Below, piece after piece: positions 38,128-51,558 of a stretch of DNA of 64,000 nt; within the stretch, counting starts at the first letter, position 1, and every line of letters begins with the position of its first letter. The position numbers and the translations under genes are program-made. The notes below the pieces were generated by a model. The model had not been told where the DNA came from, did not search any database, and saw only the letters and a list, made by a program, of their open reading frames with translations. Source of the stretch: Geodermatophilus sabuli (GTDB lineage: Bacteria > Actinomycetota > Actinomycetes > Mycobacteriales > Geodermatophilaceae); the NCBI RefSeq assembly GCF_010686765.1, contig NZ_JAAGWF010000018.1, positions 62,001-126,000 on the forward strand, written 5' to 3'.

Positions 38128-39123
38128 TCAGTCCTGCTCGACGAGGACGTTGTCGAGCTGCACGTCCCCCTCGATGATCCCGTCCTGCTCACCGAGTTCG
38201 AGCAGCAGCTCCACGGACTCGCGGTTGATCTCCGACTGGTAGGTCGGCAGCGTGAGCTGCTGGGCGATCTCCGGCGCGATCTGGGTGTAGGTCCCGAGGA
38301 CCTCCCGCACCTGGTCGGGGTTGTCCTGCGCGTACGCCTGCGCCTCGGTCATCGCGTCGGTGAACTGCTGCACGACCTCGGGGTTCTCCGCGGCGTACTG
38401 GTCGGAGGTGAACCACCCGGCGACGGTGAGGTCGTCGTCGGTCTCGGTGTAGGGGAAGGCCACCGCCCGGAGCCCCTGGCTCTCCCCCACGGTCGCGAAC
38501 GGCTCCACGGTGAAGGCCGCGTCCACCTGGCCGGTGCCGACCGCGGCCACCATGTCCGGGAACGGGATCTCCACGAACTCGATGCCCGACGGGTCACCGC
38601 CGGCCTGCCGGACGCTCTGCCGCACGACGGTGTCGCTGATGTTGTTGATCGAGTTGATCGCGATCCGGGTGCCGGCCAGGTCCGCGGCGCCCTGGATCGG
38701 GCTGTCGGCCGCGACGACCACCGCGGCGAAGTCGTCCTCGGTGTTGCCGGTCGCGCCCGCGCCCGCCGCCAGCAGGCCCAGCGGGACGCCGCGGCCCTCG
38801 GCCTGCAGCAGGCTCGTGACGTTGATGAACCCGAACTGGGCCTCGCCGTTCACCACCGCGGGCACGATCGCCGCGCCCCCCTGCGCGAGGAACGGGTCGA
38901 CCTCGAGGCCGTGCTCCTCGAAGATGCCCTGCTCCTGGCCGAGGTAGAGGGCGGCGACGTCCACGATCGGGATCGTCCCGACCCGCACGGTGGTGACGGT
39001 GGCAGTGCCACCCGAGTCCGCCGAGCCACCTGCGTCGGTGTTCCCGGACTCCTCGTCCCCGCCTCCGCACGCGGTCAGCACGACCGCGCCGGCGAGGGTG
39101 AGGCTGATCAACCTAGGACGCAC
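38128..39123 (-). CDS. Orphan lipoprotein substrate-binding protein, NMT1/THI5-like
   Basis: 331 aa, GTG at 39123 with GGAGGAGAA upstream. Lipobox Cys19 (VVLTACGGG). Binding-protein core: VRVGTIPIVDVAALYLGQEQ, VEIPFPDMVAAVGTGQVDAA, FTVEPF, GTYTQIAPEIAQQLTLPTY. It is a paralogue of the 6155, 42657 and 44915 proteins. No permease or ATPase gene is adjacent, so it probably feeds a transporter encoded elsewhere, such as the one at 3485-6015. The NTF2-like and IclR genes lie upstream on the same strand, and the second LigM-like gene diverges from them. Confidence 0.9.
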   Translation of the reverse strand: MRPRLISLTLAGAVVLTACGGGDEESGNTDAGGSADSGGTATVTTVRVGTIPIVDVAALYLGQEQGIFEEHGLEVDPFLAQGGAAIVPAVVNGEAQFGFINVTSLLQAEGRGVPLGLLAAGAGATGNTEDDFAAVVVAADSPIQGAADLAGTRIAINSINNISDTVVRQSVRQAGGDPSGIEFVEIPFPDMVAAVGTGQVDAAFTVEPFATVGESQGLRAVAFPYTETDDDLTVAGWFTSDQYAAENPEVVQQFTDAMTEAQAYAQDNPDQVREVLGTYTQIAPEIAQQLTLPTYQSEINRESVELLLELGEQDGIIEGDVQLDNVLVEQD

Positions 39124-40735: not shown

Positions 40736-42340
<1,605 letters not shown>

Positions 42341-42656: not shown

Positions 42657-43655
42657 TCAGTCGACGGGTGCGATCAGCGCATCCAGGTCCTCGACGGGCT
42701 CCTCGATGAACCCGAACTCGATCATGGAATCCATCGTGACCTCGGCCCGCTCAGTACTCGGGGCCCGGTCCTCCAGCCACGCCGGCAGGGTCATGCGCCC
42801 GGCCAGCTCGGGGGTGAGCTGGGTGTAGGTCGGCAGGATGTCGATGACGTTCTGCGGGTCGGACTCGGCCAGTTCCGCCCCGCGCTCCAGGGCGCGGGCG
42901 AACGCCGCGGTGACCTCGGGGTTCTCGGCGGAGTACTGCGACGTGGTCATGAAGCCGATCACCGGCATCTCGGCGACCCGCTCACCGCAGTTCTCGGTGG
43001 GCTCGGCGACCGCGCGCGCTCCCTGGTCCTCGGCGAGGGTGGCGAACGGCTCCCCGATGAAGGCGCCGGCGACGTTGCCCTGCTGGACGGCAGCGGGCAT
43101 GTCGGGGAAGGGGATCTCGACGAGCTCGTAGTCCCCGTCCTGCAGGCCGGCCTCGGCCAGACACTCCCGCACCTGCAGCTCGACCAGACCGGCCAGGGTG
43201 TTCACCGCGATCCGCTGACCGCGCAGTCCGGCCGCGTCCTGGGCCGGGGAGCTCCCCGCGACGAAGATCCCGTTGACCCCCTCCTTCGGCCCTGACATCT
43301 CCCACACCATCTGCGCGGGCAGGCCCTGGGACGCCGCCTGGAGCACCGTCGTCCAGTTCGAGCTGCTGAACTGCAGGTCACCGGCGACCATCGCCGGCAG
43401 CGCCGCGGACCCGCCGGCGACCATCTGCGTCTCGACCTCCAGGCCCTCCTCCTCGAAGTAGCCCTCCTGGATGGCGAGGAACAGCGGGGCGTTGTCCGGG
43501 ATCGGCAGGGTGCCGACCAGGATCGACACGGGGTTCTCCGGGCTCAGCTCCGTGCTCTCCGTGGTGCCCTCGTCGTCGCCACCTCCGCAGGCGACCAGGA
43601 GGCAGGCCGCCATGGCGATGGGGACGCCGCGCCGGACAGAACGACTCGTTGCCAC
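42657..43655 (-). CDS. Orphan lipoprotein substrate-binding protein, NMT1/THI5-like
   Basis: 332 aa from GTG 43655 with AAGGAGAA upstream. Lipobox Cys23 (LLVACGGGDD). Core blocks: SILVGTLPIPDNAPLFLAIQ, VEIPFPDMPAAVQQGNVAGA, FIGEPFATLAEDQG, PTYTQLTPELAGRMTLPAW. Two internal Cys (ECLAE, ENCGE) may form a disulfide. No permease or ATPase nearby. With the 38128 and 44915 paralogues it surrounds the LigM-like and Cys-repeat genes. Confidence 0.9.
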   Translation of the reverse strand: MATSRSVRRGVPIAMAACLLVACGGGDDEGTTESTELSPENPVSILVGTLPIPDNAPLFLAIQEGYFEEEGLEVETQMVAGGSAALPAMVAGDLQFSSSNWTTVLQAASQGLPAQMVWEMSGPKEGVNGIFVAGSSPAQDAAGLRGQRIAVNTLAGLVELQVRECLAEAGLQDGDYELVEIPFPDMPAAVQQGNVAGAFIGEPFATLAEDQGARAVAEPTENCGERVAEMPVIGFMTTSQYSAENPEVTAAFARALERGAELAESDPQNVIDILPTYTQLTPELAGRMTLPAWLEDRAPSTERAEVTMDSMIEFGFIEEPVEDLDALIAPVD

Positions 43656-43904
43656 GTGTTCTCCTTCGGATCCGGGTCCGGACGTGTCGTGCACGCCCGG
43701 CATGTCGCCACGGGCTCCGACGTCGTCCGGACGCTCTCGTTCCGGCCGGGCCGCCGGGGCTCCGGTGGTGTCGCAGGTGTACAGGACGAGGCACGTGCCG
43801 TCGAGGTCAACCGCCCGGTTCGGCCGGGACTGCGGCCGTACTGAGACCGCGGACCGCGTCTGCCGGCGACCGCGGTGCCTGGACGCCGGCTCGCTGGTGA
43901 GGGC

Positions 43905-44369
43905 CTAGCGGCGCCGCTGACCGACGGCGCCGACCGCGCCGACGGCACCGCGGAGTCCGACGCAGCCCACGCAGCCCACGCAGCCCACGCAGTCGACGCA
44001 CGCGATGCAGGCGACGCACGCCGCGCAGCCCACGTTGGCCAAGCCGGCGAGGATCGCGCTGCTGCCGACGACGACGGCGCTGAGGGCGACGCCCGCGCTC
44101 CCGATGACCCCGGCGCTGCCGACCACGCCGGCGCTCCCGGTGACGCCCGCGCTCGCGGCGGTCGCCGCGCTGCCGACGACTGCCGCGGAGGCGACGCCGG
44201 CGGCGCTGCCCACGACGGCCGTGCTGTGCGTGATGGCGGCGCTGCCGACGACGGCGCTGCTCCCGCCGGTCGCGACGCCGCCGGGCTGCGCCACCCGGTC
44301 CGGCGGGCCGCCGTCCCCCGACCCGGTCCGGGCGCCGGTGACTGGGGGGGTGACGTGTTCCTGTGGCAT
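43905..44369 (-). CDS. Val-Gly-Ser/Cys repeat protein with (Cys-X-X)8 tract
   Basis: 154 aa, ATG at 44369 with GGAGGTCC upstream. Residues 1-36 are polar and Gly/Pro rich. Residues 37-110 are near-repeats of about six residues (VVGSAG, VIGSAG, VVGSAA). Residues 115-136 carry eight cysteines at strict three-residue spacing (CAACVACIACVDCVGCVGC and on), followed by GLRGAVGAVGAVGQRRR. The DNA contains matching 9-bp tandem repeats. The hexad and triad periodicity would suit a beta-solenoid; the Cys ladder could bind metal or form disulfides. No established function that I know. High third-position G/C and a good ribosome binding site support coding. Confidence 0.7.
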   Translation of the reverse strand: MPQEHVTPPVTGARTGSGDGGPPDRVAQPGGVATGGSSAVVGSAAITHSTAVVGSAAGVASAAVVGSAATAASAGVTGSAGVVGSAGVIGSAGVALSAVVVGSSAILAGLANVGCAACVACIACVDCVGCVGCVGCVGLRGAVGAVGAVGQRRR

Positions 44370-44686
44370 GGCGGGGACCTCCGCGGTCGGCGTGGACGTG
44401 CGCAGGACGAGGACGAGGATCTCGACGCCAGCCGGCGTCCGTCGCGCGGTGCGTCGCGGACGCCGGTCGGCCCCCTCACCGCCAGGGACGACGTCGCCCG
44501 GGACGCCAGCTCGGCGAGGACGACGCGAGCCAGGCCCACCCCGCCGGCCACGAGCAGCCCGCTCGGGGTCAGGTCGAGGAGCAGGACGTCCTCGCGGACA
44601 GCCGGCGTCGCGAGGGCCAGGACCACGACCGCGGCCATGGCGGCGACGAGTGCGAGCTCCCACCGGGACGGCGGGCATGGCGGCAC
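44370..44686 (-). pseudogene. Possible frameshifted small membrane protein
   Basis: Coding-like sequence changes frame here. From a GTG at 44686 one frame encodes two hydrophobic helices (ALVAAMAAVVVLALATPAV and SGLLVAGGVGLARVVLAEL) with strong third-position G/C down to about 44480. The neighbouring frame then takes over (VEILVLVLRTSTPTAEVPA) and runs into the start of the Cys-repeat gene. An ATG with an ideal GGAGGAGG site at 44678 lies in the second frame, not the first. This looks like one small gene broken by an indel, or a sequencing error, or two overlapping short genes. The remaining 228 nt up to 44914 show no gene. Confidence 0.3.
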
Positions 44687-44914: not shown

Positions 44915-45916
44915 ATGAGCCACGCCCCCGCCAGCCGCACCCCCGTCCGGCGCCGCATCCTCGCCGCCGCGCTCAGCGCCGGGGCCGTCGTCGCGGTCAG
45001 CGCGTGCGGGTCCGGGGAGAACAGCGGCAGCGGGGACGCTCCCGCGGCGGGCGACGGTGGCGGCGGGACGACGGCGCTCACCCTCGGCTACTTCCCACTG
45101 GTGCACACCGCCTCGGCCGTGCACGCCGCCGAGACCGGGCTGTTCGAGGAGAACGGCCTGGACGTGACCCTGGAGCAGACGGCCGGCGGCGCGCAGGCGA
45201 TCCCGTCGCTGGTCGCCGGCGAGTACGACATCACCTACGCCAACTACACCTCGGGGCTGCTCGCCGCGCAGCAGGGTCTGCCGATCCGCATCGTGGCCGG
45301 CAACGACGTCGGCGCCGACGACCACGCGATCATGGTGCGCGCGGACGCCACGTACCAGTCGGCCGCGGACCTGGCCGGTGCCCGGATCGCGGTGAACAAC
45401 CTGCAGAACGTCGGCACGGTCGCGGTCAACGCCGTGCTCGAGGACGCGGGGGTCGACATCGCCGGCATCGAGTTGCTGGAGCTGCCCTACCCGGAGATGG
45501 CAGCTGCGCTGGCGGCCGGCGACGTCGACGCCATCTGGCAGGTCGAGCCCTTCCAGGCCGCCTCCCTGGGCGCCGGCCACCGGGTGCTCTTCCCGCTCTT
45601 CAGCGGCCCGGTCGAGGACATGCCGGTGGCCGGCTGGCTGACCACCGAGCAGTACGCCCAGGAGAACCCCGAGGTGATCGAGGCCTTCCGCGCGTCGCTG
45701 GCCGCGTCGATCAGCGAGCTGGACGGCGACCGCGAGCGGCTGGTCGAGCTGGTGCCGACCTACACGCAGGTGCCGGCGGAGGTCGTCGAGCAGGTGGCGC
45801 TGCCGGAGTGGGACGCCGAGGCCGACGTCGAGCAACTCCAGGAGATGGCCGACCTGATGCTGGAGTACGGGATCATCAGCGAGGAGTTCGACGTCGAGAC
45901 CATGATGGTCGACTGA
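44915..45916 (+). CDS. Orphan lipoprotein substrate-binding protein, NMT1/THI5-like
   Basis: 333 aa, ATG with AGGAGGAG upstream. Long n-region with RRR, hydrophobic core and lipobox Cys31 (VAVSACGSG). Core blocks: LTLGYFPLVHTASAVHAAET, LELPYPEMAAALAAGDVDAI, WQVEPFQAASLGAGH, PTYTQVPAEVVEQVALPEW. Most divergent of the four paralogues. Its 3' end is only 5 nt from the convergent FUSC-type gene. No transporter partners adjacent. Confidence 0.9.
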   Translation: MSHAPASRTPVRRRILAAALSAGAVVAVSACGSGENSGSGDAPAAGDGGGGTTALTLGYFPLVHTASAVHAAETGLFEENGLDVTLEQTAGGAQAIPSLVAGEYDITYANYTSGLLAAQQGLPIRIVAGNDVGADDHAIMVRADATYQSAADLAGARIAVNNLQNVGTVAVNAVLEDAGVDIAGIELLELPYPEMAAALAAGDVDAIWQVEPFQAASLGAGHRVLFPLFSGPVEDMPVAGWLTTEQYAQENPEVIEAFRASLAASISELDGDRERLVELVPTYTQVPAEVVEQVALPEWDAEADVEQLQEMADLMLEYGIISEEFDVETMMVD

Positions 45917-47648: not shown

Positions 47649-49022
47649 TCAGCACTCCACGACGTTGAGCGCGAGCCCGCCGCGAGCGGTCTCCTTGTAC
47701 TTGTCGCTCATGTCCGCCCCCGTCTCGCGCATCGTCTTGATGGCCTTGTCCAGCGAGACGTGGTGCCGGCCGTCGCCGCGCACCGCCAGGCGGGCTGCGG
47801 TGATGGCCTTGACCGAGCCGACGGCGTTGCGCTCGATGCACGGGATCTGCACCAGGCCGCCGACGGGGTCGCAGGTGAGACCGAGGTTGTGCTCGATGCC
47901 GATCTCGGCGGCGTTCTCCACCTGCTCCGGAGTGCCGCCGAGGACCTCGGCGAGGCCGGCGGCGGCCATGGAGCAGGCCGAGCCCACCTCACCCTGGCAG
48001 CCGACCTCGGCACCGGATATGGAGGCGTTCTCCTTGAACAGCAACCCGACGGCCGCGGCGGTGAGCAGGAAGCGCACCACGCCGTCCTCGGAGCAGGAGT
48101 CGATGAAGTCGCGGTAGTAGTGCAGGACGGCCGGCACGATGCCGGCGGCACCGTTCGTCGGAGCAGTGACCACCCGCCCGCCGGCGGCGTTCTCCTCGTT
48201 GACCGCCAGGGCGTACAGGGTCACCCACTCCATCGCGCGCAGCGCGTCGGTGTCGTCGCGGTGCGCCTCCAGGTGGGCGCGCAGCGCCGCCGCCCGCCGG
48301 CGGACCCTGAGCCCCCCGGGCAGGACGCCGTCGGTACGGGTGCCGCGCTCCACGCACTCCTGCATGACCGACCAGATGTGCAGCAGACCCGAGCGGATCT
48401 CGGTCTCGGTCCGCCAGGAGAGCTCGTTGGCCAGCATCACGTCACTGATCCGCAGCCCGGTCTCCTGCGTGTGGGCCAGCAGCTCCCCGCCGGTGCGGAA
48501 CGGGTACCGGACGGGCGTGCTGTCCTCGACGATCACCGGGTTGCCGGCCGCGTCCTGGTCGAGGACGAAGCCGCCGCCCACCGAGTAGTACTCGCGGCGG
48601 AGGAGTTCGGCGCCGCTCCGGTCGACGGCGCGGAAGAGCATCCCGTTGCTGTGGAACTCCAGCCGCTTGCGCCGGTGCAGCACGACGTCGTCGTCCACCG
48701 AGAAGGCGATGGGGTGCTCGCCGGCCAGCCGGAGCTCGCCCTCGTCGCGGATGGCCGCGACCCGGGGGTCCGCGCCGCGCGGGTCGACGACGTCGGGCTG
48801 TTCGCCCTCCAGACCCAGGACGACGGCCTTGACGCTGCCGTGCCCGTGCCCGGTGGCCCCGAGCGAACCGAACAGCTCGCACCGGACGCCGGCGACCCGC
48901 GCGAGCAGCCCCTCGTCCCGGAGGCGCGTCGCGAACGCACAGGCGGCTCGCATCGGCCCCACCGTGTGCGAGCTGGAGGGACCGATCCCGACCTTGAACA
49001 GGTCGAAGGTGCTGATGGTCAT
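47649..49022 (-). CDS. sdaA: L-serine ammonia-lyase (iron-sulfur)
   Basis: 457 aa, ATG at 49022; single-chain type. It deaminates L-serine to pyruvate and ammonia using a 4Fe-4S cluster. The beta domain starts with [17 protein letters not shown]; the alpha domain has [45 protein letters not shown] and the C-terminal tail Cys (ALNVVEC). It starts 55 nt after the dimethylglycine-oxidase-like gene on the same strand, so it is the last step of the betaine-to-pyruvate route. Confidence 0.96.

Positions 49023-49077: not shown

Positions 49078-51558
<2,481 letters not shown>

What the first reader, a model, noticed from the sequence alone, without database searches (positions are those of the whole stretch)
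43905..44369. Protein with eight cysteines every third residue behind a Val-Gly-Ser hexad repeat
The (Cys-X-X)8 ladder and the six-residue VGSAG-type repeat give a regular periodicity along nearly the whole chain. This suits a beta-solenoid with a stacked Cys face, which might bind metal, form disulfides or be modified. The DNA shows 9-bp tandem repeats, so length may vary between strains. I know of no described function.
Basis: partly seen in the sequence, partly recalled or inferred. Interest (0 to 1): 0.6.

Follow-up and report, generated by a model that had tools for sequence, protein, structure and literature searches.

The report
Cysteine-cored beta-solenoid beside redox enzymes
A small, previously unclassified bacterial protein, common in mycobacteria and some relatives, probably folds as a tight spiral whose last turns have an all-cysteine core, and its gene often sits close to redox-enzyme genes, so it may hold metal ions.

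Summary
The gene (44369-43905, minus, 154 aa) has Val/Gly/Ser/Ala repeats followed by eight Cys exactly three apart. It belongs to an actinobacterial family without a Pfam or NCBIfam model, present in 173 of 396 Mycobacterium genomes and sporadically elsewhere, and it is selected as protein (dN/dS 0.08-0.40 in 20 chosen pairs). The unit is a 12-residue coil; conserved Ser/Thr/Val and all Cys share one mod-3 register, as in beetle antifreeze helices, where every third residue points inward. The model of one relative aligns with that helix (1EZG, Z 8.8, rmsd 2.6 A, 81 residues), but Foldseek gives only E 1.5. So the Cys probably line the core, four per coil. An odd Cys number in 39 of 69 proteins excludes complete intramolecular disulfide pairing there. 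Close same-strand neighbours are an SDR dehydrogenase (58 of 128 loci), SdhB, a lipoyl E2, FAD and molybdenum enzymes, once a cation-efflux gene; 37 loci, the window's included, have none of those I listed. Most likely a cytosolic metal-thiolate solenoid; metal binding is inferred, not shown.

The parts
43905..44369 (-). Cys-ladder protein gene, 154 aa, ATG at 44369, TAG stop at 43905-43907
44378..44382 (-). GGAGG ribosome-binding-like site, 8 nt before the ATG
   Evidence: sequence
44277..44369 (-). residues 1-31, poorly conserved, low-confidence N-terminal tail
   Evidence: alignment; pLDDT 48, 42 and 54 for the first three blocks of ten
44037..44276 (-). residues 32-111, Ser/Thr/Val-core repeats (12-residue coils made of two hexads)
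   Evidence: 18/36/54-bp repeats
43956..44027 (-). residues 115-138, (Cys-x-x)8 = two coils of four Cys, containing D-C-V-G-C-V-G-C, invariant in the 26-row alignment
43908..43955 (-). residues 139-154, C-terminal cap, counterpart of the family's GLRxAVGLRxVH end
43960..44034 (.). 9-bp tandem repeat, 8.3 copies, coding for the Cys triads
42657..43703 (-). next gene downstream on the same strand (201-bp gap): NMT1-type substrate-binding protein; link to the ladder protein unproven

Best explanation
It is a small cytosolic beta-solenoid with 12-residue coils of four three-residue sides. One residue in three points into a narrow core: Ser, Thr, Ser, Val in the N-terminal coils, four Cys in each of the last two (this genome) to three (the commonest mycobacterial form) coils. 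I propose that each all-Cys coil, in effect two CxxC units, offers four thiolates to a thiophilic metal ion (Zn2+, Cu+ or Fe2+), so that the protein carries a short stack of buried metal-thiolate sites. In many genomes it is encoded close behind or ahead of redox enzymes and would act as their metal- or redox-buffering companion. Shown here: protein-level selection, the 12-residue/mod-3 layout, Cys in one register, close same-strand neighbours in many relatives. Supported but not proven: the beetle-antifreeze-like fold and the core location. Inferred only: metal binding and the partner role.
For: Register: columns with 85% or more of one residue between residues 40 and 136 number 22 in the Cys phase against 5 and 2 in the other phases; 821 of 826 Cys in the examined region of 69 proteins lie in that phase (summed from the table). 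Period 12. Seven Cys are invariant in the 26-row alignment. AF2 of relative L045: ladder blocks pLDDT 81-89, a bridge residue every third position; VIA-align 1EZG Z 8.8, rmsd 2.6 A, 81 of 82 residues, next row 7.6. Inner C2, S5, C8, A11 in the 12-residue beetle coil (PMC8038014, passages). Odd Cys number in 39 of 69. The first in-frame start codon of the ladder gene overlaps or abuts the stop of SDR, SdhB, lipoyl E2, FAD-enzyme and Mo-hydroxylase genes in relatives; one copy lies on the same strand after ArsR and cation-efflux genes.
Against: No metal was measured and no coordinates could be inspected. Only two of five AF2 models of L045 pass mean pLDDT 60; the window protein reaches 64.6, and its own VIA list is led by a left-handed beta-helix (GlmU, Z 7.2, rmsd 10.1) without 1EZG among 28 chains. 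Foldseek finds nothing significant in the PDB (1EZG E 1.5). The tool warns that for repeats a Z below about 13 may mean only a common arrangement, and the 1EZG match covers the Ser/Thr/Val part, not the Cys part. A 12-residue core is narrow. The metal-efflux neighbour is 1 of 128 loci; 37 of 128, the window among them, have none of the neighbours I listed, and that list was drawn up from neighbours already recognised. The SDR also occurs in genomes without the ladder gene.
Confidence: 0.38

Rival explanations
1. Disulfide-stapled solenoid: as in beetle antifreeze protein the core Cys form cross-core disulfides and merely stabilise a surface or exported protein.
For: Best structural alignment is the disulfide-laddered 1EZG; Cys 2 and 8 of that coil pair across the core.
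Against: Odd inward Cys number in 39 of 69 proteins, which excludes complete pairing within one chain but not between chains; no typical signal peptide visible by eye in the starts of A1 (no predictor run); tight junctions with genes of cytosolic enzymes such as the lipoyl E2.
Confidence: 0.2
2. Thiol redox or sulfur reservoir: the stacked thiols hold electrons or persulfide sulfur for the co-encoded oxidoreductases or for lipoyl and Fe-S chemistry, without a fixed metal.
For: Many recognised neighbours are redox genes; in Thermoleophilia LipB and LipA follow the E2-ladder pair, and WhiB is upstream in 7 of 128 loci.
Against: The partners share no thiol chemistry; buried thiols would be poorly accessible.
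Confidence: 0.17
3. Passive scaffold: Cys is just a small core filler; the hydrophobic Val/Ala/Gly outside drives self-assembly or enzyme or membrane docking.
For: Presumed outward positions are mainly V/A/I and G/A, GRAVY 2.4 and 0.15; conserved polar residues in the ladder and cap suggest a binding surface.
Against: Seven Cys are invariant in the 26-row alignment while Ser/Thr/Val serve the same register elsewhere.
Confidence: 0.15
4. Precursor of a thiazole-type modified peptide, like heterocycloanthracin (Cys-x-x) cores.
For: Cys-x-x triads; heterocycloanthracin-type precursors have such triads (recalled).
Against: No YcaO in 11 of 16 ladder-bearing genomes examined, the window's among the 11; no recurrent neighbour that I identified is a peptide maturase (not all neighbours were identified).
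Confidence: 0.03

Closest known systems
Tenebrio molitor type beetle antifreeze protein (PDB 1EZG)
   Same: 12-residue coil; every third residue inward in the beetle coil and one residue in three conserved here; backbone of the L045 model aligns, Z 8.8, rmsd 2.6 A over 81 residues
   Different: Beetle: inward C,S,C,A with one disulfide per coil and outward Thr; here four Cys per coil in the last coils, Ser/Thr/Val before, outward Val/Ala/Gly, no Thr array; no antifreeze protein among PDB sequence matches
Left-handed beta-helix hexapeptide proteins
   Same: Six-residue sub-repeat; GlmU-, LpxD- and DapD-type rows lead or appear in the structure list of the window model; L045 model has short strands every six residues
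   Different: Strongest sequence period 12, not 18
Bacterial Cys-x-x and His-x-Ser repeat peptide precursors (heterocycloanthracin, HxsA4)
   Same: Triad repeats (recalled); HxsA4 is the only NCBIfam row
   Different: HxsA4 11.1 bits against cut-off 55; no YcaO in 11 of 16 genomes
Metallothioneins such as mycobacterial MymT (recalled)
   Same: Small Cys-rich protein, CxxC motifs
   Different: Here the Cys lie almost all in one register of a predicted solenoid; no metallothionein row in Pfam

Membership tests
Beetle (TmAFP) antifreeze proteins | 12-residue tandem coil | tested here: met
   lag 12 identity 0.63 in the N-terminal part
Beetle (TmAFP) antifreeze proteins | conserved core residues at every third position | tested here: met
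   for the sequence register; the inward orientation itself is taken from PMC8038014 (a model built on 1EZG), not shown here
Beetle (TmAFP) antifreeze proteins | right-handed 12-residue beta-helix fold | tested here: inconclusive
   Z 8.8 (below the 13 advised for repeats); Foldseek E 1.5; handedness not seen
Beetle (TmAFP) antifreeze proteins | outward TxT ice-binding array | tested here: not met
   outward phases are V/A/I/L and G/A; Thr about 5% of one phase, not among the 8 commonest letters of the other
Beetle (TmAFP) antifreeze proteins | sequence homology | tested here: not met
   profile of 26 members finds no antifreeze protein in PDB sequences at E 1
Left-handed beta-helix hexapeptide family | 18-residue coil (three hexads) | tested here: not met
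   lag 12 0.63 exceeds lag 18 0.40
Collagen-like repeat (PF01391) | score above Pfam cut-off | tested here: not met
   12.7 bits against 27.2
His-Xaa-Ser HxsA4 precursors | score above NCBIfam cut-off | tested here: not met
   11.1 bits against 55
Thiazole/oxazole RiPP precursors | YcaO cyclodehydratase in the genome | tested here: not met
   absent in 11 of 16 ladder genomes, absent in G000; present in 5
Metallothioneins / metal-thiolate proteins | binds metal through Cys | not testable with these tools
   needs purified protein

The most novel reading that the evidence does not exclude
Each all-Cys coil binds one metal ion in a buried Cys4 site, so neighbouring coils hold a linear stack of two to three metals at beta-sheet spacing: a genetically encoded metal-thiolate stack, present in about 44% of sampled Mycobacterium genomes and often encoded next to oxidoreductases, and a protein architecture for which I know no described precedent.
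Probability: 0.2. Interest if true: 0.85.

Novelty: new variant of a known kind. Interest (0 to 1): 0.62.

Why it matters
A family without a Pfam or NCBIfam model is present in 173 of 396 Mycobacterium genomes sampled, with seven Cys invariant across 26 diverse members. The beetle 12-residue antifreeze repeat is reported as not found in bacterial antifreeze proteins (PMC8038014, passages); here a bacterial protein seems to use the same coil with a core made of Cys. If it binds metals it is a new kind of metal site and a template for design. Its gene neighbours (SDR, succinate dehydrogenase, lipoyl E2, molybdenum and FAD enzymes) give concrete partners to test.

Tried and rejected
Low-complexity artefact or non-coding repeat: rejected by dN/dS and by Ser coded as both AGC and TCG at conserved positions. 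Collagen-like and HxsA4: below cut-offs. Thiazole RiPP. Phage or plasmid cargo: no relative in plasmids (query L045, E limit 1e-5) or in viral contigs (one short pattern); the only phage hits are three Streptococcus phage Sfi19/SFi18 records covering 52% of query L035 at 41-42% identity, residues 16-93, outside the Cys part, and weak PHROG rows, the best 4.4e-7 over the ladder of L045; I judged them low-complexity without following them. SDR as an obligatory partner: rejected, the SDR occurs in 87 of 118 Mycobacterium genomes whereas the ladder occurs in 53 of the 118, and the Opp-SDR operon was seen without a ladder gene in 6 of 8 loci fetched for this. Enrichment of redox neighbours was not tested against a background. 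Fold searches gave no significant PDB relative; 1EZG stands out only in the VIA re-alignment. BFVD best row A0A5B8IEK9, E 2.6e-5, was not followed. Paper searches for the motif CVGCVGC, Cys ladders, solenoid metal sites and mycobacterial Cys-rich proteins listed nothing on this family that I could recognise; only PMC8038014, found, was opened (passages).

Selection and rows dropped: of 53 stretches fetched, six (L137-L142, weak hits) showed no ladder by my pattern, which asks for at least five Cys in triads, and were left out; so four of the 12 phylum hits lack it. Because loci were kept by that pattern and the register table is anchored on three of the Cys, the Cys constancy is partly by construction; (tblastn-selected, though two of six seed patterns held Cys) is the fairer test. 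Duplicate ladders were removed: 133 loci to 128; the 69 are the unique ones of the first 73. Gene calls come from a home-made GC3 caller and include false ORFs. 'Neighbour' means a same-strand hit within roughly 0.4 kb upstream or 150 nt downstream, not a checked gene order.

Full report
Observation. The gene at 44369-43905 (minus) encodes 154 residues with eight Cys exactly three residues apart behind Val/Gly/Ser/Ala repeats. The 9-bp DNA repeat is real. A GGAGG lies 8 nt before the ATG and the frame has the third-position GC of a coding frame. None of 20,000 residue shuffles reproduced the ladder.

Family. Pfam and NCBIfam have no matching model. The own genome has one copy; its five other rows have E 0.4 or worse. 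Among 61 relatives 11 match at E 0.01, four of them at E 1e-10 or better. Across the phylum 12 of 396 match at E 1e-6, four of which show no Cys ladder. In Mycobacterium 53 of 118 (E 1e-10) and 173 of 396 genomes (E 1e-20) have it; four of the 173 show two copies.

Selection. In 20 of 20 hand-picked pairs dN/dS is 0.08-0.40. At conserved Ser columns both AGC and TCG occur, which needs two changes, so the amino acid is what is kept.

Architecture. In the N-terminal part identity at lag 12 is 0.63, at lag 6 0.41, at lag 18 0.40; in the ladder part lags 3, 6, 9 and 12 stand out. In the 26-row alignment the columns with 85% or more of one residue between residues 40 and 136 number 22 in the phase of the Cys, 5 and 2 in the others. 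Thus Ser, Thr, Ser, Val of the repeats and Cys of the ladder occupy the same series of positions. In 69 unique proteins 821 of 826 Cys of the examined region lie in that phase (summed). Read in coils of 12, the consensus of the 69, most of them mycobacterial, is C-V-A-C-L-A-C-x-A-C-x-R / C-V-A-C-V-G-C-V-R-C-T-D / C-V-G-C-V-G-C-V-N-C-S-G, with polar residues recurring at coil positions 8, 10 and 11 and a capping GLRxAVGLRxVH. Seven Cys are invariant in the 26-row alignment; in the 69 they are also constant, the eighth 89%, but that set was chosen by a Cys pattern. Ladders hold 8 to 14 consecutive Cys, 12 in 38 of 69; the window protein and five close kin have the minimal eight.

Fold. AF2 of the window protein is weak (mean pLDDT 64.6, ladder blocks 78-84); its VIA list of 28 chains is led by the left-handed beta-helix of GlmU at Z 7.2 and rmsd 10.1 A. 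AF2 of relative L045 is better (72.6, ladder blocks 81-89), with short strands every six residues, i.e. two per 12-residue coil, and then single-residue bridges every three; two of five models pass 60. Foldseek against the PDB is not significant. VIA-align, a re-alignment of Foldseek's own candidates, puts the beetle antifreeze protein 1EZG first: Z 8.8, rmsd 2.6 A, 81 of 82 residues, next row 7.6. The tool advises caution below Z 13 for repeats, and the match covers model residues 20-100, the Ser/Thr/Val part. The idea of a 12-residue coil with four Cys per coil had been noted from sequence before the L045 model was made. In a beetle homologue modelled on 1EZG side chains are described as out-in-out-out-in..., with C2, S5, C8 and A11 inside (PMC8038014, passages), the same every-third register. 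I therefore place the Cys in the core. No coordinates could be inspected.

What the Cys do. An odd number of core Cys in 39 of 69 proteins excludes complete disulfide pairing within those chains. No typical signal peptide is visible by eye in the aligned starts (no predictor run), and neighbours such as lipoyl E2, LipB and LipA are cytosolic enzymes. Four inward thiolates per coil, two CxxC units, would suit one thiophilic metal per coil. This is inference.

Neighbourhood. In 128 unique loci a close same-strand neighbour (within roughly 0.4 kb upstream or 150 nt downstream, from a list of neighbours already recognised) is an SDR dehydrogenase in 58 (39 upstream, 19 downstream), SdhB in 8, WhiB in 7, an RNase Z-like protein (named by eye) in 5, a lipoyl E2 in 3, a FAD-binding protein in 3, an acyl-CoA-dehydrogenase-like protein in 3, and once each a flavin-monooxygenase-like protein (Pfam Pyr_redox_2), a cation-efflux protein, a molybdenum hydroxylase subunit and an Opp-type ATPase alone; 37, including the window, have none of these. 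These are counts of loci, related ones included. Names come: SdhA, SdhB, LipA, LipB and the FAD-binding protein pass NCBIfam cut-offs; the E2's best row, pyruvate dehydrogenase acetyltransferase, is below its cut-off, and so are the SDR and acyl-CoA dehydrogenase rows shown (the SDR passes Pfam's adh_short cut-off). Junctions can be tight, judged by the first in-frame start codon: 4-nt ATGA overlaps with SDR (L113, L120), SdhB (L146), E2 (L031, L040, L135) and the Mo subunit (L119); 1-nt overlaps with SDR (L025, L026, L106, L127); 1 nt after the FAD protein (L098, L101, L123). In L117 the gene lies on the same strand after ArsR, a cation-efflux gene and a 76-aa ORF. The tree (many forks unresolved) suggests that the addresses broadly follow clades, so the gene has changed address repeatedly. 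The SDR also lives without it: 87 of 118 Mycobacterium genomes have the SDR, and 6 of 8 fetched ladder-free loci keep the Opp-SDR operon. The redox theme is suggestive; no background test was made.

In the window the gene stands between two NMT1-type substrate-binding protein genes; the downstream one (42657-43703) is on the same strand after 201 bp. Close kin in Geodermatophilaceae (L022, L023, L024, L134) have other neighbours, so the local context says little.

Verdict. A real, widespread family that I found nowhere described in the searches named; beta-solenoid with 12-residue coils probable; Cys core probable; metal-thiolate function the most likely single reading, at 0.38.

Noticed in passing
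window 38128-39123 (-), 42657-43703 (-), 44915-45916 (+): Three NMT1/THI5-like substrate-binding protein genes within 8 kb, two of them flanking the ladder gene.
   Followed up: partly
window 40781-42340 (+), 47649-49022 (-), 49078-51543 (-): Two GCV_T-domain proteins (one a FAD oxidoreductase/GCV_T fusion, dimethylglycine-dehydrogenase-like from memory) and an L-serine dehydratase: perhaps a one-carbon or demethylation catabolic cluster.
   Followed up: no
L117 (unnamed Mycobacterium genome G480): A ladder gene in a same-strand array ArsR - cation efflux - 76-aa ORF - ladder; the 76-aa ORF has no Pfam match but its end resembles the end of the efflux protein. The same genome holds a second ladder gene.
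   Followed up: partly
L028, L037, L044: A subfamily starting M/V-x-V-K-L-L-x-x-P-L-S, a hydrophobic start unlike most other members, possibly membrane-associated.
   Followed up: no
L032 and L037 (same MAG): Two divergent ladder paralogues in one actinobacterial MAG.
   Followed up: no
BFVD A0A5B8IEK9, Mimiviridae sp. ChoanoV1: Best predicted-structure match of the L045 model, a viral 'TNFR-Cys' protein, E 2.6e-5 over 138 columns; perhaps another Cys-cored small solenoid.
   Followed up: no
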